The translations under genes were made by a program, and so were the position numbers. The notes beneath the pieces were generated by a model. The model searched no databases. It was not told where the DNA came from and worked only from the letters and a program-made list of their open reading frames with translations. Positions 28,680 through 42,912 of a stretch of 64,000 bases of DNA are shown here, piece by piece. The stretch's first letter is position 1, and each line of letters opens with the position of its first letter. This DNA comes from Pseudeuparius sepicola (taxonomy: Eukaryota > Arthropoda > Insecta > Coleoptera > Anthribidae), in contig OY987306.1 of NCBI GenBank assembly GCA_963920635.1, forward strand, positions 10,372,001 to 10,436,000, read 5' to 3'.

Positions 28680-29637
28680 TACAGGGTGTCCCGAAATTAT
28701 CCTGCCATAATTTACCAGCGTGTTCTACGACCTAAAAAAATGAAAAAAGTTCCTATAAACATGGCCTTAAAAATTCCCCCTAATGGGGCTATAGCCCCGA
28801 AAAGGGGTAATTTCACAAACGGTTTTTCCAAATTTTTCCAGAACAAACAAAGATAACATTCTGAAATTTGGTATGTGATGTACCTGTGAGATTTGACATT
28901 TGCCGGGGTAGCGATAGTTAGACATTCTTAATCATAGGCCTAAATAGGGGGTTAAGGGATTAAAAATACCCTAAATATTTTGTGTGTGCTTTTTCCCCAA
29001 ATTTATTGCGAAATTATAAAAATTCATTATTATTCTAAGACAAAATGGTGCTCTTGCTGGACTTTGATAGCGTGCACCGTTTTCGAGTAAAATCGTATTG
29101 AAATTTTATTGCAGAGGGCCATGAAAATGCCTATTAGAAATTAGCCTGCCATATTTTACCAGCGTGTTCTGCGACCCAAAAAAATGAAAAAGTTCCTATA
29201 AACATCGCCTCAAAAGTGCCCCCTAAAAGGGCTATAGCTCTCGAAATGGACACTTTGGCATACGGTTTTTCTAAATATTTCCAGAACGAGCAAAGATAAA
29301 ATTCTGAAATTTGGTATGTGACATACCTCGGAGAATAAACCATGAAAAAAGCACAGAAAAAATTTTGGGATATTTTTAACCCCTTGACCCACCTCATTTG
29401 GGACACCTATGACGAAGAATGTCATACTCTCTCAGGCTAATAATTTCTAATAGGCATTTTCATAGCACTCTGCAAAAAAATCTCACAGGAGCATCACATA
29501 CCAAATTTCAGAATTTTATCTTTGTTCGTAGAAACCCGTTTGTGAAACTGCCCCTTTCGGGGGCTATAGCCCCATTAAGGGGCATTTTTGAGGCCATGTT
29601 TATAAATTATGGCAGGCTAATTTTGGGACACCCTGTA
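28680..29637. mobile_element. 958-bp fold-back element, TA-flanked
   Basis: Starts TACAGGGTGTCCCGAAATTA and ends TTTTGGGACACCCTGTA; TA lies at 28678-28679 and 29638-29639. Arms of about 230 bp include GGGGCTATAGCCCC in both orientations. A third, partly degraded copy of the arm lies inside (29130-29340, same orientation as the left arm), so an internal duplication took place. Frames at 29134-29425 minus and 29419-29688 plus are arm-derived. Confidence 0.8.
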
Positions 29638-30071: not shown

Positions 30072-30075
30072 TGGA

Positions 30076-30489
30076 TGTTATATCCGACCTCAAGCATCAC
30101 CTTGATCATAACCTTGTTTTTACCGTTGATTCTGTTTACTGTTGGATATTATGTTCTCATTCTCTATTGTTCAAGATGCTTACTACAAAGATATCATTTT
30201 CCATTGTATATTGTTCTAGAATGATTACTAGAACATATCATATTCCTTTTGAGTATTGTTAAAACTTGCTTACTGCAAGAATTGCAGAATTTGATCTTCC
30301 CTTTGTCTTTATACTCCTTTCCCATGAGAACCACAACACCTCAGCATAACAGATCTGTATAAATAGGACCTAGTAAAGTAAGAGTGTTAATTCTAGTCTT
30401 GTCTGTAGTCTAAGCCGAAACTCTGTAACTCGCGTTACTCAAATAAAAGTTTTTTTTAAAAAGTCTTCGTCTTCACGTCGCCCGTAACA
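30076..30489 (+). repeat. 5' LTR, 414 bp
   Basis: TG...CA ends. A TATA box, TATAAATA, at 30358-30365 should place the transcription start near 30390, and AATAAA at 30442-30447 gives the polyadenylation signal, so R would be about 60-90 bp. It differs from the 3' copy at two bases (in the TACCGTTG and TATACTCC segments) and in the length of one T run. Confidence 0.9.
30358..30365 (+). promoter_or_regulatory. TATA box of the LTR promoter
   Basis: TATAAATA, 84 bases upstream of the AATAAA signal. Same motif in the 3' LTR. Confidence 0.7.
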
Positions 30490-30492
30490 ATT

Positions 30493-30510
30493 TGGTGTCA
30501 GAAGTGGGAT
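30493..30510 (+). other. Primer-binding site, tRNA-Leu
   Basis: TGGTGTCAGAAGTGGGAT, three bases after the LTR, is the complement of the 3' end of an insect tRNA-Leu including CCA, as far as I know that tRNA. It primes minus-strand synthesis. Confidence 0.75.
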
Positions 30511-30517
30511 CCTCGAT

Positions 30518-30656
30518 AAAAGGGTCTTCAACGAGGGAGATCCGGAGGCACTTAGAAGGACAGTCTCCTCGGGGGTCACCACACCACTACGATTGGAGCC
30601 AGCTGAAAAGGGTCTTCGACAGGAAGATCCGGAGGCACTAAGAAGGACAGTCTCCT
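30518..30656 (+). repeat. 50-bp direct repeat in the 5' leader
   Basis: 30518-30569 and 30607-30656 are nearly identical (AAAGGGTCTTC, GATCCGGAGGCACT, GAAGGACAGTCTCCT). Lying between primer site and gag, it is where packaging or dimerisation signals sit in retroviral RNAs; that role is inferred only from position. Confidence 0.7.
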
Positions 30657-30704
30657 GAGGCCAGCATCCAGCAACAACAGCAGCATCAACGACATCCAGC
30701 GAGC

Positions 30705-30721
30705 ATGAAGTTACTTCTATT
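30705..30721 (+). promoter_or_regulatory. Env leader exon and splice donor
   Basis: An ATG at 30705 followed by four codons and two bases runs to a near-perfect donor, TT/GTAAGTG, with GT at 30722-30723. Joined to the acceptor at 36419-36420 (TTCGTTACAG), the phase is exact and leads into env. In unspliced RNA the same ATG reads only six codons to a TAA at 30723-30725, making a tiny upstream frame before gag. Errantiviral env is known to be expressed from spliced RNA. Confidence 0.7.
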
Positions 30722-30829
30722 GTAAGTGAAAAACTTGAAGTGAATTTTATTTGTGATTTTTTTTTGAACTTTCTACGTTGCTATTATTGAACTTTCTACG
30801 TTATAACGATATTACCTTTTCATTTCAAC

Positions 30830-32026
30830 ATGCCGAATAACGAAGCTATAAACTCTAATGTAAACAATGAAGCAAACGCTTCAAATAACGACGAAGTACC
30901 ATTTAAATTAAGCGAAATATTTTCTATCATCCCTGAATACGATGGGGATCAAATCAATTTAAATACTTTTATCATTGCATGTGATAGGGCCATGCAAATG
31001 ACTGTTGGCGACCAAGCCATTTTACTTGTTATAAAAATTAAAAATCAATTAAAGGGACGTGCAGCCCAACTCATTAATTCAAGAGACTTGAGTACCTGGA
31101 GGGAAATCAAACAATTACTTAACGTTCATTTCGGAGATCCTCGCGATCTAACTTCATTAATTCAAGATTTACAAAGAATGTGTCAATCCCAAAATGAAAA
31201 TGCTTTGACTTTTGTAGGCAGAGTTCAAACTCACTGCTCGAAAATGTATGCCGCAATAGGAAAACAAAGCCTTCTCACTAGGGAACAAAAAGAATCGCAA
31301 GCTACATTAATCGATAGCATGTGCCTAAATACAGTTTTGACAGGTTTAGAACCAAGAATAGGGCAACTAATTCGTGCTAGCAATCCACCAAACATGATGG
31401 ATGCTATAGCTTTAATTAAGAGAGAATTGCAACTTTCTTATTTTGAAAATCAAAAATTTCAGAGGCAAAATCGTGTACCAGTCTTCAATAATAATATCAA
31501 AAGAACCAGTAATAATTTTCCAAAATTTTGTAATTATTGCAAAAGAAATGGACATACTATCAATGAATGTCGAACTAAAAATCAAAATAATTATTACAGA
31601 AATGGTCCAAATCCTTCTAGCTACTCTAACAATTTCCAAAATAACTCCCAAAGAAATAATTTCTCCCAAAATAGGTTCCATCAAAGACCATCTTTTCCTC
31701 AGCAAAATAATTTTCAAACTCCTCCTTTCCAACCTAGGAATCACCCTCAAAACTTCCAACCAAGAAATCAACCTCCTAGAAATTTTTCTAATAATATTCC
31801 TAGAAACAATTTCCCAAGAACTTTTAATAATAATTCAAGTTTCCAGCCTTCTAATCAAAATTTTACTCCTAGATTCCCAAATTCAAATCCAAATAACCAA
31901 AATAGAACTCCCCAACAACATTATCTGGGCCAAAGCGAAAATTTTCAATTAACAGCCTCGGACCAGAATCCTATTCCCAACTTCAAGAATCTTGGTATGA
32001 CCAATACGGACCAAACGTTTGCATAA
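30830..32026 (+). CDS. gag: Gag polyprotein
   Basis: Structural protein of 398 residues. Residues about 30-210 form a Gypsy-type capsid region (FSIIPEYDGDQINLNTFI, later LTGLEPRIGQLIRASNP). A single CCHC zinc knuckle, CNYCKRNGHTINEC, has its ligands at C234, C237, H242 and C247 and should bind genomic RNA. The remaining 150 residues are very rich in Asn, Gln, Pro and Phe (repeats such as NNFQ and PRNQ) and presumably disordered. The start, ATG at 30830, is the first after the leader uORF and has AACATGC context. The frame ends TAA at 32024-32026; 80 bases earlier lies the heptamer A AAT TTT, a likely site of -1 frameshifting into pol. The other frames across this region (31412-31771 minus, 31443-31952 plus) are shadows of the repetitive tail. 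Confidence 0.92.
   Translation: MPNNEAINSNVNNEANASNNDEVPFKLSEIFSIIPEYDGDQINLNTFIIACDRAMQMTVGDQAILLVIKIKNQLKGRAAQLINSRDLSTWREIKQLLNVHFGDPRDLTSLIQDLQRMCQSQNENALTFVGRVQTHCSKMYAAIGKQSLLTREQKESQATLIDSMCLNTVLTGLEPRIGQLIRASNPPNMMDAIALIKRELQLSYFENQKFQRQNRVPVFNNNIKRTSNNFPKFCNYCKRNGHTINECRTKNQNNYYRNGPNPSSYSNNFQNNSQRNNFSQNRFHQRPSFPQQNNFQTPPFQPRNHPQNFQPRNQPPRNFSNNIPRNNFPRTFNNNSSFQPSNQNFTPRFPNSNPNNQNRTPQQHYLGQSENFQLTASDQNPIPNFKNLGMTNTDQTFA
31939..31945 (+). promoter_or_regulatory. Candidate -1 frameshift site, gag to pol
   Basis: A AAT TTT in the gag frame fits X XXY YYZ. A shift of -1 here enters the frame that carries the protease motif LIDTGAG at 32086-32106 without an intervening stop. Confidence 0.7.
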
Positions 32027-32166
32027 ATACCGTTGACAATAGCAATCTATATTATATTAAAGATAATACCGATAAGTACAAAATTTTAATTGACACAGGA
32101 GCTGGTATTTCAATTTTCAAACCAGAGACGGTTCAGCAATTTTTAAATCGATGTCCAGAAAATTTT
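31946..32166 (+). CDS. pol: Pol N-terminus: start of protease, -1 frame
   Basis: Read in the frame one base behind gag, this stretch is open through the retroviral aspartic protease active site, ILIDTGAGISIF (Asp codon at 32092). It has no ATG of its own and needs frameshifting from gag. At about 32160 the protein similarity passes to the frame that holds the rest of pol, with the flap region (GISGQSIPITEA) and the second protease motif (ILGADFLERYG) in that next frame. Staying in the first frame gives non-conserved residues and soon a stop. The transition coincides with a second A AAT TTT heptamer. Either a single base was lost from the A4T4 run in this copy, or there is a second programmed shift. 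Confidence 0.7.
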
Positions 32167-35100
32167 CAAATAAAGGTATTTCTGGCCAATCAATTCCTAT
32201 TACTGAAGCGGTATTTGTTTCTTTTACGGGTCCTCTTTCTCCCCATAAAGTTTATATTTGCGATCTAGATATAGGATTCGACGGAATTTTAGGCGCTGAC
32301 TTTCTAGAAAGGTACGGTGCAATAGTAGATTTTAGGAATAAACAATTAATTACGTACTATAAGGTACACGAATTATTTAAAGACGGAGATGAATTAAACG
32401 AGTTAACGAATAATAATGATAATAATAATCGAGTTGTTTATAAAAGACAAGTTAATGTTGACGAAAGATACGATAGCCTTCATATAAACGCTTATGAACG
32501 AAATAATAATAATAATAACGATTACACGGAAAATATAAATAATTTTGAAAGCGAAAATACGAGTTATAATATAAATCAGGTTACGATAGAACCGCGTTGC
32601 GAAAAAATATGCAAGTTTCATACGAATAAATATACGAATAAAGAAATGATTTTATGCGCACAACGAGTAGAAAAGGTATACGTGCCAAATGCTATAGTAA
32701 AAATAAACGAAGACGGTAATTTTTATACGACAATATTAAACGCTAATGCCATAACAAAGGATATTTGTTTCGAAGAATTTGAATTTGAGCCTTACATTAA
32801 AGAAACGAACGCTAGTGCTAATATTATTTGTAATTTTAATAAAACGAAAAGCAGAGTAGAAGAAATAAAAGAATCATTAAGGCTAGAACATTTAAACGAA
32901 GAAGAAAAGGAATTAATTACTAATTTATGTTTGAATTTTGAAGATATATTTTACTTTGACGGAGATTTTTTAAGTTTTACTAATGAAATAAAACATACTA
33001 TCGATACAGGCGACGCTAAGCCAATTTTTACTAAATCTTATCGATATCCACAAGTTCACAAGGAAGAAGTAAAAACACAAATTAATAAAATGCTTTCTCA
33101 AGGAATAATTAGACCTTCTGTTTCACCATGGTCGTCCCCAGTATGGGTCGTTCCAAAAAAATTAGACGCTTCAGGCAAACAAAAATGGAGAATCGTAATT
33201 GATTATCGGAAATTAAATGAATTAACAGTTAATGACAGGTATCCACTGCCTAATATTTCAGATATATTAGATCAGTTGGGTAATTGCCATTATTTTACTA
33301 CTTTAGATTTGGCTTCTGGTTTTCAACAAATTGAAATGAATCCAGAAGACATTTCGAAAACTGCTCTTTCCGTTGAAAATGGACATTTCGAATATTTACG
33401 TATGCCCTTTGGCCTTCGTAATGCGCCCTCAACCTTTCAGAGGGTTATGGATAATATACTAATGGGGATACAAAACGAAAAGTGCTTAGTTTACATGGAC
33501 GACATTATTATTTATTCTTCCACAATTAATGAACATATCTCTCGTATTACTGAAGTTTTTCAAAGATTAAGAAATTCAAATCTAAAAATACAGCCAGATA
33601 AGTGTGAATTCTTACGAAAAGAAGTAATTTATTTAGGACATGTTATTACACCTGAAGGGGTCAAACCAAATCCACAAAAAGTACAAGCTGTTATCGATTT
33701 TCCTCAACCTGCCAATACTAAACAAATTAAACAATTTTTGGGTCTTACTGGTTACTACAGGAAGTTTATTCCAAACTTCGCAAAAATGACAAAGCCTTTA
33801 ACTCGACTTTTAAGAAAAGACGTACCATTTATTTTTGATAAAGATTGTCGTGAATCTTTCGAACAACTTAAAAATGCATTAATAACTTCACCAATTCTAA
33901 TATATCCTAATTTTGAAAAGGAATTTGTTTTAACTACAGATGCAAGCGCTTTTGCTGTAGGCGCGGTACTTTCGCAAGGACCTGTTGGAAATGATCTTCC
34001 CATAGCATACTTTTCAAGAACCTTAAGTCCAGCAGAAATAAAATATAGCGTTATAGAGAAAGAACTATTGGCAATAATTGCTGCCGTAAAAAACTATAGA
34101 CCTTATCTTTTCGGACGAAAATTCTTATTGGTTACAGATCATAGACCTTTAACCTGGCTTTTCTCAATAAAAGATCCCGGTAGTCGTTTAGCACGTTGGC
34201 GACTTAAATTAGAAGAATATAATTATCAAATAATTTATAAACCTGGAAAAATTAATCGAAATGCCGACGCTTTATCTCGAATCACAATCAATCATATAAA
34301 AGAAGCTGTTTCCTTTCATACTTCCCTAGACGAACCATCTACTTCTCATGATAATCTTCAAGACATTGACCCGCCTATTGACAATAATGAGACTGACGAA
34401 ATTGCTATAATCTGTAATGAATTTGACAGATTTTTTGATCTATACAAGACGACTTCAATGATCGATTATTCTAAAATCCAATATACAAATAATCAACTTT
34501 TAGACAAAACACACAAGGACATTGTACTAATTTTTCAACAAGACAAATTAACAGACCTTCACGAAAAAGTTATTGATGATTTACTTGAGCTAAATCCTGA
34601 TTTTAACTATAATAAAGCAAATGTTCTTTCCAGTCAAACCGTAGCTAAAAGAAAATATTATATAATTCCTGTTCCTTTTAATTTTGAAACCGCAATACAA
34701 GTACTCTTCATATCTCTTTATTACAGTAAAGATATATTCGAAGAAAATAAAACTTATTACATTGAAAACAATCCAGATTTTCCAATTTTAGAAATGTTTA
34801 ATTTTTTGTTCTCAGATAAAAATTTCCAACTAACAATTTGTCAGAACATTGTGACTATACCAGACGAAGACCAAATACCTATAATAATAGATCAATTTCA
34901 TTCAGGCAAGACAAACTTACATCGAGGAATAAACGAAACAATTAGACGTATTAAACAAAAATATAATTGGACAGGACTAACTAAAGACGTTGAAACCTTT
35001 ATTCGACAGTGCGAAATCTGCCAAAAGACAAAAATTTGTAGACAAAACTTGGACAGTCCCTTAGTTATTACCGAAACTCCTAAAACTCCTTTCGAAAGAA

Positions 35101-36401
35101 TAAATATCGACATCCTAGAAATCCCAGTAAAAAATAATATCCTTACCATAAGAGACGAACTAACAAAATTTACCCAAGCTTATGCACTTCCTAATAAAAC
35201 AGCGAGATCTGTAGTAGACGCTCTTTTACTCTATTTTCAACATTTTGGAACTCCTTTAAGAATCCATTGCGATGTAGGTAAAGAATTTAATAATCAATTA
35301 ATGAAAGATCTTTGTAAATTATACAATATAAAATTAACTTTCTCTAGTGTTAGTCATCCGCAATCAAATGGCTCCTTAGAAAGATTTCATGCCACCTTAA
35401 CTGAAATGATACGCGCATGTAGTACAGAAAATCCTAACGAACACCCATTTCAAATGCTCCCTTACGCTTGTATAGCATATAACAATTCTATAAATAAAAC
35501 ACACGGCTTTACTCCTTACGAATTGCTATTCGGTCACACCTCGTCTCGACCTCCAGAAGTTTTGTATAATCAGCAAGAATTAATCTCTAAGTACGTTCGC
35601 GATTTAAACAATAAAATAAAGCATTATTATGAAGTGGCAAGAAAGCGTACGGATATGCGCAAACAAAAGGCGAAACAGCGATTTGATACACACGTTTCGG
35701 AGCAGCGACAATTTCGCGTAGGAGAAAAGGTTTATGTCAAGGAGTCCCAAATAAAAAATAAACTAGCTAACAAATTTAATGGACCCTATAAAATTAAAGA
35801 AATTTATACGAATTCAGCTTTGCTACATAACCCAATTACTAACCAAACTACAAAAATGAATTTTGATATGCTAAAGAAATGTCACGAATTACAGGAAGAA
35901 GAACTAACGGTTAAAGAATTCTTTTATACTCTAGATCGAAAAATCCCTATTGAAAATAATAACGTTTCCATTGAACTGGGCAACTTATTTGATGCCCCTG
36001 AAAATATTTCATTAGCTCACTGTGTATCTAAAGATTTAGAAATGAATGCAGGAATTGCAAAAGAATTTAAGAATAAATTTGGACACGTAGATGAACTAAA
36101 AAATCAAAATAAGTCAATTGGTGAAATAGCAGTACTTCAACTTCCGACAAGAAATATTTATTATTTAATAACTAAAGAATTTTTCTATTATAAACCAACT
36201 TATGCTAATTTATTTAATTGCTTAAAGGAATTACGAACAAATTGTCTCGAGAGCACTGATGAAAAAGATAAAATTATAGCTATACCCAAGTTAGCTTGTG
36301 GATTAGACAAATTAGATTGGGACACAGTTCTCCCTATGATCAAATATATTTTCAAAAATACTGATATTAAAATAATTTGTTATATCGAACCAAGTTCCTA
36401 A
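32151..36401 (+). CDS. pol: Pol: protease C-term, RT, RNase H, integrase, macro domain
   Basis: The open frame of 1416 codons counted from 32151 carries, in order: end of the aspartic protease (ILGADF near residue 40); reverse transcriptase with YMDD at 448-451; RNase H with TTDASAF (Asp 597); integrase with the zinc-binding residues H917, H924, C954, C957 and the catalytic triad D987, D1041, E1077 (D-35-E); and a GPY motif at 1211-1213. After this, where Gypsy Pol proteins usually end, the frame continues for about 140 residues (1265-1410) as a macro domain. The ATG at 32151 is not a true start; it lies inside the protease, and Pol is made by frameshift from gag. No stop or obvious lesion from RT to the end. 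Its last 25 bases overlap a long frame that contains env. Confidence 0.93.
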   Translation: MSRKFSNKGISGQSIPITEAVFVSFTGPLSPHKVYICDLDIGFDGILGADFLERYGAIVDFRNKQLITYYKVHELFKDGDELNELTNNNDNNNRVVYKRQVNVDERYDSLHINAYERNNNNNNDYTENINNFESENTSYNINQVTIEPRCEKICKFHTNKYTNKEMILCAQRVEKVYVPNAIVKINEDGNFYTTILNANAITKDICFEEFEFEPYIKETNASANIICNFNKTKSRVEEIKESLRLEHLNEEEKELITNLCLNFEDIFYFDGDFLSFTNEIKHTIDTGDAKPIFTKSYRYPQVHKEEVKTQINKMLSQGIIRPSVSPWSSPVWVVPKKLDASGKQKWRIVIDYRKLNELTVNDRYPLPNISDILDQLGNCHYFTTLDLASGFQQIEMNPEDISKTALSVENGHFEYLRMPFGLRNAPSTFQRVMDNILMGIQNEKCLVYMDDIIIYSSTINEHISRITEVFQRLRNSNLKIQPDKCEFLRKEVIYLGHVITPEGVKPNPQKVQAVIDFPQPANTKQIKQFLGLTGYYRKFIPNFAKMTKPLTRLLRKDVPFIFDKDCRESFEQLKNALITSPILIYPNFEKEFVLTTDASAFAVGAVLSQGPVGNDLPIAYFSRTLSPAEIKYSVIEKELLAIIAAVKNYRPYLFGRKFLLVTDHRPLTWLFSIKDPGSRLARWRLKLEEYNYQIIYKPGKINRNADALSRITINHIKEAVSFHTSLDEPSTSHDNLQDIDPPIDNNETDEIAIICNEFDRFFDLYKTTSMIDYSKIQYTNNQLLDKTHKDIVLIFQQDKLTDLHEKVIDDLLELNPDFNYNKANVLSSQTVAKRKYYIIPVPFNFETAIQVLFISLYYSKDIFEENKTYYIENNPDFPILEMFNFLFSDKNFQLTICQNIVTIPDEDQIPIIIDQFHSGKTNLHRGINETIRRIKQKYNWTGLTKDVETFIRQCEICQKTKICRQNLDSPLVITETPKTPFERINIDILEIPVKNNILTIRDELTKFTQAYALPNKTARSVVDALLLYFQHFGTPLRIHCDVGKEFNNQLMKDLCKLYNIKLTFSSVSHPQSNGSLERFHATLTEMIRACSTENPNEHPFQMLPYACIAYNNSINKTHGFTPYELLFGHTSSRPPEVLYNQQELISKYVRDLNNKIKHYYEVARKRTDMRKQKAKQRFDTHVSEQRQFRVGEKVYVKESQIKNKLANKFNGPYKIKEIYTNSALLHNPITNQTTKMNFDMLKKCHELQEEELTVKEFFYTLDRKIPIENNNVSIELGNLFDAPENISLAHCVSKDLEMNAGIAKEFKNKFGHVDELKNQNKSIGEIAVLQLPTRNIYYLITKEFFYYKPTYANLFNCLKELRTNCLESTDEKDKIIAIPKLACGLDKLDWDTVLPMIKYIFKNTDIKIICYIEPSS
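32160..32166 (+). promoter_or_regulatory. Second in-phase A AAT TTT heptamer, within protease
   Basis: The 12 bases GAAAATTTTCAA are the same as at the gag-pol site, and the heptamer is in phase to shift -1 from the protease-start frame to the main pol frame. Whether it works or is the scar of a 1-base deletion cannot be decided from one copy. Confidence 0.5.
35955..36401 (+). other. Macro domain of OARD1/TARG1 type fused to Pol
   Basis: Pol residues about 1268-1416. Seen: an opening strand with GNLFD, then LAHCVS (A1289-C1291), NAGIAKEFKNKFG (N1299 onward, the GAGIA phosphate-binding loop with Gly to Asn), GEIAVLQ, IYYLITKEFFYYKPTY with K1342, and IPKLACGLDKLDW with D1386. In the TARG1 family the equivalent Lys and Asp are the catalytic pair that removes ADP-ribose from acidic residues. 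Both are kept, which suggests an active ADP-ribosyl hydrolase or at least an ADP-ribose binder. Role in the element is inference: countering host ADP-ribosylation, or acting on chromatin near the integration complex. It has the same AT-rich codon usage as the rest of pol, so the fusion is not brand new. Confidence 0.85.
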
Positions 36402-38293
36402 TTCTGAAACTTCGTTACAGATTTTCTTTGTTCGCTACCGCTATGGCACAATATACACTGCGACCAATTAATAACACCATAGGCGTGTTCTATCAAGAGC
36501 AATCCGGACTCAAAATTTCTAATGACAAGTGGAGTTTATTGGTATATAAAGACATTTCATCTCTAAAAACAACATTCGAAAATAATAATAAAATTTTAGA
36601 AAATATGCAATTTATAATTCAACCAAAAGACGTACGAATGGCCGCCTTTCTAAGCGAAGTTAAGTCACATCTCACTTTACTAAATCAACTTTCCGAAAAC
36701 ATTGCGCTCAAATTTGAAGAATTAGCTATTGATGTAAGAAGATATAAAAGAGGTTTAATTAATGGTTTAGGGTCAGTTTGGAAATTTATTACCGGAAATT
36801 TAGACGCTTCAGACGGACAGTATTATAACGATTGTATCGACAAAATTAACAGAGACGAACACGAATTAGAAAAATTAATGAAAAAACAAATTTTAGTAAC
36901 TACTTCAGTTATCAAAAACTTTAACGACTCTATCAACAAATTACAAATTGATGAAATTACTTTTAATAATGACATAAAACAAATCGAAAATTACATTTAT
37001 AACATTTCTGATAATTTTAATTATTACACTGCAAAATTACAAGTTTTAGAGATGGCCGAAAGACTCCTAGAATCCTATACCTTTATCGAAAGCAATTTAA
37101 ATGACATTCTAAACTCTATTACTTTTGCAAAACTACATATCATTCACACGTCAGTTATAACTCCTGAAGACCTGGTTCATCATTTGCAAATAATCGCTCA
37201 AACTTTAAACAAAAATAATTTGCCCTTAACTCCTCAACTTCTAAATGTTGCAACTTATCTTGATTTTATAGAACTAAAGGTTTTTCAAACAGAAAATAGA
37301 CTTGTTTTTATATTAGACATTCCTTTAGTAGAACCTCAATGGTATACTCTTTATAGAATTTATCCTATTCCAATTTTCGACAATAAAACTGGATTTTATC
37401 ACATGGTATCCACTGATACTAAATTTGTAGCAAAAAGCGATGACCCAACTCTCTATGTAATTCTCTATGATATAAAAAATTGTAAAGAACTAGCATTTGA
37501 TTTAATAATGTGCAAAGATTTATATCCTACTCCTATTGACTCACATTCAAGATGTGAAGCTCAATTATTAGAGGTAAAAACCCATTTACCTAATACTTGT
37601 GACATAGTCACAATTTCAATTGAAAGTTACAATGTACAATTGATTCAAGAGAATCAATGGTTAATAATTTTAAGTGAAATATTTCCTATAACTATTAAGT
37701 GCAAAAATCAAAATCCTTTGACTATAATGCTAGACAAAACTTCAATTTTAACGTTAAAATCTGAATGCATTGCTTATATTGGAAGTACTAAAATTCAAAC
37801 GAAAAATTTAAATAAATCTAATCAAACCTATAAATTTCACCCAATTAATATACCATTTGAATGTTGCAAAGAAACTCCAAATAAACTAAAATATCCTGAC
37901 TTAAAACCTTTACAACTAAATAAATTTAATTATGACGATTTAAATGTCGCAAAGCATAAATTAGACGAATATGCAAAGGATCTTGATAATATTATTAACG
38001 AACCAACTGTAAATAAGTATACGCCAATATTGACATATCTATCCATTACTTTAATCATACTTTTAATTATTGTGTACTTTTATTTTAAATGTAAAAAGTC
38101 TAGGAACATTAAAATAGGCATTATTACTACTAACAACGGAGACGATCCTCCACAACCTCCTAGAACTCGAAATCACGTTTTTCAAAATTTAAGAAAATTT
38201 GTTACTGTCAAAAGAAGACCTTCGTATAGATTGGACGAACCTCGCGAAGAAGAAGAAATTGAACTAAATTCTAATACTAAAACATATGCCTAA
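36377..38293 (+). CDS. env: Envelope glycoprotein, errantivirus F-like
   Basis: A 638-codon frame, but the first ATG (36377) overlaps pol and is probably not used; splicing from 30721 to 36421 is in phase and provides a hydrophobic signal peptide. After the signal comes an ectodomain with a furin-type site, RYKR, at residues 122-125, directly followed by a Gly-rich fusion-peptide-like stretch (GLINGLGSVWKF), the conserved signature shared with insect errantiviral Env and baculovirus F proteins. Asn-rich helical segments and scattered Cys follow, then one transmembrane segment at about 548-570 (LSITLIILLIIVYFYF) and a basic, then acidic, cytoplasmic tail of about 68 residues. No internal stop. 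It would mediate membrane fusion if expressed. Confidence in family is high; activity unknown. Confidence 0.9.
   Translation: MLYRTKFLILKLRYRFSLFATAMAQYTLRPINNTIGVFYQEQSGLKISNDKWSLLVYKDISSLKTTFENNNKILENMQFIIQPKDVRMAAFLSEVKSHLTLLNQLSENIALKFEELAIDVRRYKRGLINGLGSVWKFITGNLDASDGQYYNDCIDKINRDEHELEKLMKKQILVTTSVIKNFNDSINKLQIDEITFNNDIKQIENYIYNISDNFNYYTAKLQVLEMAERLLESYTFIESNLNDILNSITFAKLHIIHTSVITPEDLVHHLQIIAQTLNKNNLPLTPQLLNVATYLDFIELKVFQTENRLVFILDIPLVEPQWYTLYRIYPIPIFDNKTGFYHMVSTDTKFVAKSDDPTLYVILYDIKNCKELAFDLIMCKDLYPTPIDSHSRCEAQLLEVKTHLPNTCDIVTISIESYNVQLIQENQWLIILSEIFPITIKCKNQNPLTIMLDKTSILTLKSECIAYIGSTKIQTKNLNKSNQTYKFHPINIPFECCKETPNKLKYPDLKPLQLNKFNYDDLNVAKHKLDEYAKDLDNIINEPTVNKYTPILTYLSITLIILLIIVYFYFKCKKSRNIKIGIITTNNGDDPPQPPRTRNHVFQNLRKFVTVKRRPSYRLDEPREEEEIELNSNTKTYA
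36411..36420 (+). promoter_or_regulatory. Splice acceptor for env
   Basis: TTCGTTACAG, ten bases after the pol stop. The first exon base is 36421; combined with the two leftover bases of the leader exon the codon phase is exact for env. Confidence 0.65.
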
Positions 38294-38330
38294 TTTAATG
38301 TCAAAATTTGTTAACACAAATTTTTAATAT

Positions 38331-38341
38331 AAGGGGGAAGG
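38331..38341 (+). other. Polypurine tract
   Basis: AAGGGGGAAGG directly before the 3' LTR; primes plus-strand synthesis. Confidence 0.85.
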
Positions 38342-38754
38342 TGTTATATCCGACCTCAAGCATCACCTTGATCATAACCTTGTTTTTACCCTTGATTCTG
38401 TTTACTGTTGGATATTATGTTCTCATTCTCTATTGTTCAAGATGCTTACTACAAAGATATCATTTTCCATTGTATATTGTTCTAGAATGATTACTAGAAC
38501 ATATCATATTCCTTTTGAGTATTGTTAAAACTTGCTTACTGCAAGAATTGCAGAATTTGATCTTCCCTTTGTCTTTATATTCCTTTCCCATGAGAACCAC
38601 AACACCTCAGCATAACAGATCTGTATAAATAGGACCTAGTAAAGTAAGAGTGTTAATTCTAGTCTTGTCTGTAGTCTAAGCCGAAACTCTGTAACTCGCG
38701 TTACTCAAATAAAAGTTTTTTTAAAAAGTCTTCGTCTTCACGTCGCCCGTAACA
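38342..38754 (+). repeat. 3' LTR, 413 bp
   Basis: Nearly identical to the 5' LTR; ends GTAACA, followed by the TGGA target duplication. The short frame at 38308-38490 is non-genic. Confidence 0.9.
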
Positions 38755-38758
38755 TGGA

Positions 38759-41520: not shown

Positions 41521-42912
41521 GAGACAAAAAATAATGAGTAATAAATTAACAAATTTTTTGAGTAAACAAAATTTACTTTTTGATGGTCAATATGGTTTCC
41601 GCAAATGTAGGGATACAGAAATAGCTGCAATTGATTTAATTACCAACATACAACTAAATATTGACCAGAATAAGAAGTGCTGTTTATTATCTCTAGATTT
41701 GCAAAAGGCTTTTGACACAGTAAATCATAACATACTAATGAAAATTCTTTATAATTTTGGTATTCCAGGGAATATATATAATTGGTTTAAAAATTATTTA
41801 ACTGGCAGAAAACAATTTGTAAGCATTGGAAACCATGTAAGTTCGCAAGCTGACATTGTTTGTGGAGTTCCACAAGGTTCAATTCTTGGACCAACATTAT
41901 TTCTGAAGTATATCAATTCAATTTCTAAATTACAGATTAATGGAAATCTAAAATTGTATGCAGATGACACAACAATTTGAAAATGACAATAAATTATTTT
42001 GGTGATGACTTTAATATTATAAAATCTAATGTTCAAGAAAATATTAAATTGATTTCTATTTGGTTACAATCTTATAAGCTTTCATTAAATGCAGAAAAAT
42101 CTTCATTTATGTTTATTTCAAAGCAGCAATTGAATTATTCAGCACAATCAATAACTTTTAACAATAAAATTATCAAGTACTCATAGTCAATAAAATTTTT
42201 AGGACTGTATATAGATGAAAAATTAAATTGGAAAATTCATGTGGAACACATAAGAAAATCGGTTTCTCTGCTCGTAGGTATACTCTTTAAAATTCGTTAC
42301 TATGTACCAACAACAATTTAAAAAATTATATATTACGCACTAATTTATTCAAAATTACAGTATTTAATTTCTGTTTGGGGTTCTGTCACCATTTCAGTTC
42401 TAAGTCCTTTAAAGAAACTACAAAATAAAACCAATAAATGTATCCATAGTTACCATTTTTAGAACCAACAATAAATTTATATAAACCTGAACGATATCTT
42501 AATATAGAAAATATTTATAAATAAAAAATTTGCATACTATTACATTCCATAAATATCGGAACTAAGGCCTCAACTATAATATTTCAAAAAGTTAGTAAAA
42601 AACATAAACACGATACTAGACAAACTGATCTCCTACAAACAATAGCATTTAAAAGCAATATTGGCAGAGGGTGTTTATTATATAAGGGTATTTTAATATA
42701 AATAATGCTTTGCCAAACTATTTAAAAAAATAAATATCATTTATAAATTTAAAAAGGTCTGCAAAGACTTAATTTGAAATTATGAAATAGCTGAATTTTG
42801 ACTTTTTTTTTTGTTATTTCGGTTTCTTTTACTTGAATTTGTAAATAGTTTTAAGATTCCCTGTAATCTATTTTTAAGTTGGCTGTGGAATAAACAATGA
42901 ATACAATACAAT
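41521..42912 (+). pseudogene. Jockey/CR1-type LINE, 5'-truncated
   Basis: A non-LTR reverse transcriptase remnant. The first open stretch (41534-41980) shows the fingers-palm order: DGQYGFRKCRDTE, CCLLSLDLQKAFDTVNHNIL, GVPQGSILGPTLF, and the catalytic LYADDTTI. A stop follows at once, and the thumb region continues through other frames (SLNAEKSSFMFISK, then FLGLYIDEKLNW, HIRKSVSLLVG, YYALIYSKLQYLISVWGS) to about 42460. The 3' part is AT-rich and ends in AATAAACAATGAATACAATAC, a short tail typical of this LINE group. The endonuclease and ORF1 are absent. Several stops show it is dead. Confidence 0.8.

What the first reader, a model, noticed from the sequence alone, without database searches (positions are those of the whole stretch)
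35955..36401. Retroviral Pol that ends in a TARG1-like ADP-ribosyl hydrolase domain
The pol frame runs without a stop from integrase (D-D-35-E, GPY motif) into about 140 residues that follow the OARD1/TARG1 macro-domain pattern: LAHC, an AGIA phosphate loop, ITK with the catalytic Lys (1342) and GLD with the catalytic Asp (1386). Conservation of both residues in a young element argues for selection. A mobile element carrying an eraser of ADP-ribosylation could resist a host PARP response or act on chromatin at integration. I do not recall a described errantivirus with this layout, but cannot exclude one.
Basis: partly seen in the sequence, partly recalled or inferred. Interest (0 to 1): 0.92.

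Follow-up and report, generated by a model that had tools for sequence, protein, structure and literature searches.

The report
Insect retrovirus carrying ADP-ribose eraser domain
An abundant virus-like element in an insect genome has, fused to the end of its replication polyprotein, a relative of the cellular enzyme that removes ADP-ribose tags, and related elements carry the same kind of module at other places in the same protein, which hints at an unrecognised contest between such elements and ADP-ribose tagging.

The parts
30072..30075 (.). target-site duplication TGGA, 5' copy
   Evidence: sequence
30076..30489 (+). 5' LTR, 414 bp, TGTTA...TAACA
   Evidence: blastn of the two LTRs: 414 columns, 99.3%, 2 mismatches and 1 gap
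30830..32026 (+). gag ORF, 398 aa
   Evidence: weak Retrotrans_gag match, E 0.004, below cut-off
32151..36401 (+). pol ORF, 1416 aa, open to the end of the macrodomain
33153..33647 (+). reverse transcriptase (RVT_1)
33909..34220 (+). RNase H (RT_RNaseH)
34464..34856 (+). degenerate (pseudo) TARG1-like macrodomain between RNase H and integrase, Pol 772-902; catalytic Lys and GLD motif missing
34866..35033 (+). integrase zinc-binding domain (H2C2)
35085..35360 (+). integrase core (rve)
35781..35789 (+). GPY motif of the integrase C-terminal domain
35952..36383 (+). C-terminal TARG1-type macrodomain, Pol 1268-1411
36174..36176 (+). catalytic lysine codon, K1342 (human Lys84)
36306..36308 (+). catalytic aspartate codon, D1386 (human Asp125)
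36377..38293 (+). env ORF (mechanical start TTG), Baculovirus F-like
   Evidence: Baculo_F 2.4e-39
38342..38754 (+). 3' LTR
38755..38758 (.). target-site duplication TGGA, 3' copy

Best explanation
The element is an env-bearing Ty3/gypsy retrovirus of insects (errantivirus type) whose Pol polyprotein ends in a TARG1-type ADP-ribosyl-hydrolase domain. Supported by results here: the domain, its intact active-site residues, its standing place in a high-copy family, purifying selection on it, and repeated acquisition of such modules by related Pols at different sites. Inferred: translated as part of Pol, the domain goes into the particle with integrase (either still fused to it or cut off by proteolysis) and removes ADP-ribose from the element's own proteins on Asp/Glu, or from phosphorylated ends of its RNA and cDNA, before and during integration, so undoing ADP-ribosylation by host PARP-like enzymes. 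The degenerate macrodomain between RNase H and integrase would be an older capture kept as a structural or binding domain after its catalytic residues were lost.
For: Domain and catalytic residues. In 93 of 100 copies chosen by the RNase H-integrase interval the macrodomain stands at the same place (2 more keep it but lack the integrase piece; 5 do not have it in place); Lys in 92 of 92 and Asp in 91 of 92 copies with sequence there; shared variants N 8, S 14, stop 1 against a neutral N share of 0.76 (P 8.8e-5), singletons N 48, S 23, stop 3; integrase control, shared N 3, S 14. 0 of the 150 listed genome matches (of 915 candidates) have a stop. Recurrent gain: 16 of 121 intervals with Gly, Lys and Asp all kept, and modules at three Pol positions in one genome. 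TARG1 acts on Asp/Glu-ADP-ribose and on phosphate ends of nucleic acids (passages of PMC7050489, and PMC6582358) and on thymidine-linked DNA ADP-ribosylation (abstract of PMC8501950).
Against: No activity, processing, packaging or host target was tested; no protease domain was identified in Pol (no Pfam match, no DTG/DSG-type motif in Pol 1-400). Of the 40 nearest listed relatives (P0012-P0051) none has a macrodomain after integrase, so it is dispensable for close kin. The sampled copies were the best matches to the interval, shared variants can share descent, and counts are small; 1 of 23 shared macro variants is a stop, and the shared N/S is weaker in the macrodomain (0.18) than in integrase (0.08). 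The interval domain shows that the macro fold can be kept without catalysis.
Confidence: 0.5

Rival explanations
1. One reading: the domain mainly binds ADP-ribose or poly(ADP-ribose) and steers integrase to PARP-active or damaged chromatin; hydrolysis is secondary.
For: It follows the integrase C-terminal domain directly, the end at which chromodomains sit in other Ty3/gypsy elements (recalled). [quoted passage not shown]
Against: Lys and Asp needed for hydrolysis are kept in 92 of 92 and 91 of 92 copies, which binding alone would not need. In related Pols the module sits upstream of RT or before integrase, away from the integrase C-terminus.
Confidence: 0.2
2. Structural or regulatory appendage: the fold is kept as a spacer or to tune integrase assembly and Pol processing, not for ADP-ribose chemistry.
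For: The interval domain of the same Pol has a macrodomain fold without the catalytic Lys, and 31 of 47 profile-linked interval domains lack the full Gly/Lys/Asp set.
Against: The C-terminal domain keeps all active-site residues, and catalytic versions are found again and again in related Pols.
Confidence: 0.2
3. Neutral passenger: a chance read-through fusion amplified by hitch-hiking in a young burst.
For: Most copies are 98-100% identical in DNA, so identity by itself says little.
Against: Purifying selection on shared variants, and separate gains of the same enzyme in related Pols.
Confidence: 0.05

Closest known systems
TARG1/OARD1 (C6orf130), ALC1-like class macrodomain hydrolase
   Same: Best PDB match over the whole domain, catalytic Lys/Asp pair, phosphate loop.
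   Different: A stand-alone cellular protein; here the C-terminal domain of a retroelement Pol.
Macrodomain ORFs in fish epsilon-like endogenous retroviruses (Basta et al. 2009, known to me only as cited in one passage of PMC4977317)
   Same: A retroviral element carrying a macrodomain gene.
   Different: There described as additional ORFs in ray-finned fish Epsilon-like elements; here inside Pol of insect Ty3/gypsy errantivirus-type elements, at several Pol positions. Macrodomain class of the fish genes not compared.
Viral macrodomains of alphaviruses and coronaviruses
   Same: Virus-encoded ADP-ribosyl-hydrolases (PMC6582358 abstract passage, for VEEV and SARS).
   Different: None was among the 6 PDB sequences that matched the C-terminal domain at E up to 1 (five TARG1, one other macro protein, 7omu).
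dUTPase captured into retroviral Pol at different positions (recalled)
   Same: A host enzyme taken up more than once by retroviruses at different Pol positions.
   Different: A different enzyme; the comparison is from memory.
TARG1-like genes of IMG/VR viral contigs
   Same: 89 TARG1-like stretches found with the macro alignment.
   Different: 0 of the 80 loci kept show RT or integrase; many contigs are over 100 kb, phage-like by size only.

Membership tests
TARG1/OARD1 macrodomain hydrolases | significant sequence match to TARG1 over the whole domain | tested here: met
   E 3.2e-37, residues 10-153 of 158
TARG1/OARD1 macrodomain hydrolases | catalytic Lys84/Asp125 pair and AGIA phosphate loop | tested here: met
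TARG1/OARD1 macrodomain hydrolases | hydrolysis of ADP-ribose from Asp/Glu or nucleic-acid ends | not testable with these tools
   needs protein
TARG1/OARD1 fold, interval domain Pol 772-902 | macrodomain fold nearest TARG1 | tested here: met
TARG1/OARD1 hydrolases, interval domain Pol 772-902 | catalytic Lys and GLD motif | tested here: not met
   Lys position holds Val and the GLD stretch falls in a gap in the hhalign alignment
Errantivirus (Metaviridae, insect endogenous retroviruses) | LTRs, 4-bp target duplication, gag-pol-env order | tested here: met
Errantivirus (Metaviridae, insect endogenous retroviruses) | baculovirus F-like envelope | tested here: met
   Baculo_F 2.4e-39
Errantivirus (Metaviridae, insect endogenous retroviruses) | RT phylogenetic position beside named errantiviruses | tested here: inconclusive
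   nearest named Pols are insect proteins; no named errantivirus reference was in the trees
MacroD-type viral macrodomains (alphavirus nsP3, coronavirus Mac1) | sequence match of the C-terminal domain to the class | tested here: inconclusive
   none among the 6 PDB sequences at E up to 1 in a single-sequence search; not compared by profile or fold
Fish Epsilon-like ERVs with macrodomain ORFs | same element lineage and homologous macrodomain gene | not tested
   sequence not on hand; passage only

The most novel reading that the evidence does not exclude
TARG1 is a recurrent weapon of insect retroviruses: an ADP-ribose-erasing module that errantivirus-type Pols capture, swap between families and re-site (before RT, between RNase H and integrase, after integrase), that often decays into a structural pseudo-macrodomain, and that is then gained again. 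This would mean that ADP-ribosylation of proteins or nucleic acids is a general barrier against reverse-transcribing elements in insects.
Probability: 0.45. Interest if true: 0.92.

Novelty: new variant of a known kind. Interest (0 to 1): 0.86.

Why it matters
Macrodomains are known as countermeasures of RNA viruses against PARPs. An eraser built into the Pol of endogenous retroviruses, kept by selection and gained at several positions, would point to ADP-ribosylation as a defence against reverse transcription or integration in insects, and gives a natural set of active and decayed versions with which to test it. The pseudo-macrodomain would also put a name to the interval between RNase H and integrase in at least part of this group.

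Tried and rejected
Leader-helix idea: I thought that a helix before the macrodomain (seen by eye) tied the window's domain to interval macrodomains. Two PSSM tests gave no support (with a misplaced anchor: 4460 of 20000 shuffles as good, corrected, on 15 leaders after dropping P0059, P0101 and P0116: 7663 of 20000), so it is dropped; one search was a failed script for the same test.

Origin of the window's C-terminal module: not resolved. With 27 rows, neither one clade of all element macrodomains (p 0.38), nor window with tandem M1 (p 0.26), nor window with stand-alone TARG1s (p 0.11) is rejected. With 29 rows it falls among element macrodomains at weak support (84/90); window plus sister family A is rejected (p 0.0018) and window plus A plus B gives p 0.018.

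Reach of the interval pseudo-macrodomain: a second lineage (P0119 with 27 relatives) was folded; its interval is ordered (pLDDT about 81-90) but the VIA-align rows shown were integrases, and hhalign gave 0.4% against 0.8% for its reversed control. So the claim is limited to the window's clade and the 47 of 121 profile-linked intervals.

Single-step profile searches did not link the window's interval to macrodomains (hmmsearch E 0.22; hhalign 6.7%; iterated hmmsearch no hit); the link rests.

Host TARG1 gene: not identified. Of the 150 listed of 838 candidates, 24 loci were examined; 23 show RT, RNase H or integrase of elements of known layout beside the macrodomain and 1 (L203) is unclear. Relatives in viral contigs: none with the window domain alone, then loci without RT or integrase.

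Full report
What is in the window. A provirus lies at 30076-38754: two LTRs of 414 columns, 99.3% identical (2 mismatches, 1 gap), flanked by TGGA duplications, with open gag (30830-32026), pol (32151-36401) and env (36377-38293) frames. Pfam names RT, RNase H, integrase zinc-binding and core domains in pol and a baculovirus-F-like env; gag matches only weakly. No protease was identified: no Pfam match and no DTG/DSG-type motif in Pol 1-400. The layout is that of insect errantiviruses. The window lies in a 769-Mb genome of 16 contigs. The closest named Pol relatives come from beetles (Anoplophora, Anthonomus, Diabrotica, Harmonia), so a beetle host is likely but not shown.

The last ~145 residues of Pol match the Pfam Macro model above its cut-off and human TARG1 at E 3e-37, 47% identical over 146 columns. 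The integrase D-35-E pair (Pol 1041) and GPY (Pol 1211) are there.

It belongs to the element and is under selection. The genome search with the domain lists 150 of 915 candidates, all at 99-100% identity and 0 of 150 with a stop inside (the list keeps the best matches, so it cannot show decayed copies); the 8 loci given all have the integrase directly upstream. To avoid choosing copies by the domain itself I took copies listed by the RNase H-integrase interval (150 of 2362 candidates listed) and fetched 100 of those 150 (60 on the + strand, 40 on the - strand). In 93 of 100 the macrodomain stands in place; L069 and L079 have it but lack the integrase piece; in L039, L042, L101, L103 and L106 it is not in place, and for L039, L042 and L106 one search lists a macrodomain further along the same strand. 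In 78 of the 93 the domain is full length without stop or deletion. Variants seen in two or more of the 93 copies and the window, which should mostly have passed through transposition, are N 8, S 14, stop 1 where neutrality predicts an N share of 0.76 (P 8.8e-5; ratio 0.18). Singletons are N 48, S 23, stop 3 (ratio 0.66, P 0.07). The integrase control gives 0.08 for shared and 0.92 for singletons. Limits: copies were the best matches to the interval, shared variants can share descent, the 7 copies above and codons with more than one change (7 in the macrodomain, 3 in integrase) were set aside.

The nearest kin lack it. The first 40 proteins of the Pol search (P0012-P0051, 45-68% identical) all align in the integrase C-terminal part, and in none of the 40 does a macrodomain follow; at most 22 residues do, and a few of these proteins are fragments. 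P0042 has one, but before integrase.

Repeated gain at different sites. In the same genome a search with a stand-alone TARG1-like protein (P0008) lists 150 of 838 candidates. Of 24 loci examined (the 8 best and 16 that I picked for variety of frame and identity), 11 have the macrodomain upstream of RT (family A), 8 right after RNase H, 5 of these with the integrase further on in the stretch (family B), 4 after integrase (window family), and 1 (L203) is unclear. In family A, 3 of 7 loci translated (L192, L194, L196) read in one frame through the macrodomain into RT; in L208 a deletion joins the two, and in L190, L191 and L207 the frame closes before RT. The part upstream of the macrodomain in L196 matches window Pol 8-253 at 32%, the part downstream Pol 235-400 at 72%. 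The family A RT is 78% identical to the window's, yet its macrodomain is only 48% identical to the window's; holding them together in the macro tree is rejected (p 0.0018). Families A and B, by contrast, share leader, macrodomain and tail over 279 columns at 46% although they sit at different places in Pol: the simplest reading is that the module was moved as a block. The same is seen in Harmonia: macrodomains of P0002 and P0003 are sisters while their RTs are not (AU p 0.0012 on RT; on the macro side the RT grouping of P0003 with P0101 and P0116 is rejected at p 0.0038; both RTs have long branches). On the quick RT tree of 109 rows (12 Pols too short or without a match left out) the catalytic state needs 10 changes.

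How it most likely works. TARG1 removes ADP-ribose from Asp/Glu and from phosphate ends of nucleic acids (passages seen: PMC7050489; PMC6582358), and thymidine-linked ADP-ribose from DNA (abstract of PMC8501950). As part of Pol the domain would be packaged with RT and integrase, that is, where the genome RNA ends, the cDNA ends and the integrase itself are exposed. I infer that it cleans these of host-added ADP-ribose, or clears ADP-ribosylated chromatin at the target. Rival readings are a binding tether for integrase and a structural role; a neutral passenger is disfavoured.

What is known. Searches of the open paper library (capped listings, not opened except as named) and look-ups in PMC13172572 and PMC12992720 (0 occurrences of 'macro' and 'ADP-rib' in each) gave no report of a macrodomain in an errantivirus or insect LTR element. 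One passage in PMC4977317 says that fish Epsilon-like retroviral sequences occasionally carry macro domain ORFs (Basta et al. 2009, not seen). Hence a new variant of a known kind: macrodomain-bearing retroviruses are on record, but the place in Pol, the insect lineage, the TARG1 class with intact active site, the selection, the several sites and the decayed inner copy are, as far as these searches reach, new.

Noticed in passing
G000:C9:4192731-4326864: 21 of the 150 listed hits of the RNase H-integrase interval lie here on one strand, mostly 6013 bases apart: a tandem array, its unit shorter than the provirus.
   Followed up: no
P0004 (535 aa, contig of 2019 bases): PHD-finger-like stretch, TARG1-type macrodomain and GDSL esterase in one protein; looks like an ORF1 protein of a CR1-type LINE (recalled), i.e. 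TARG1 in a non-LTR element too.
   Followed up: partly
P0002 residues 619-732 (Harmonia axyridis): A second, degenerate macrodomain in tandem behind an intact one, both between RNase H and integrase.
   Followed up: partly
P0007 (Molorchus minor, 238 aa): TARG1-type pieces interrupted by other sequence; possibly a broken element copy annotated as a gene.
   Followed up: no
L109-L188 (IMG/VR contigs): TARG1-like macrodomains are common in viral contigs: 89 stretches matched, none of the 80 kept loci with RT or integrase.
   Followed up: partly
window 32151-33350 (+): No protease domain or DTG/DSG motif found in the first 400 residues of Pol; where the element's protease lies is open.
   Followed up: no
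window 28735-28891 and 29178-29334: A 157-bp direct repeat, 82% identical, just upstream of the provirus.
   Followed up: no
window 41534-41980 (+): A 148-aa open frame outside the provirus, not examined.
   Followed up: no
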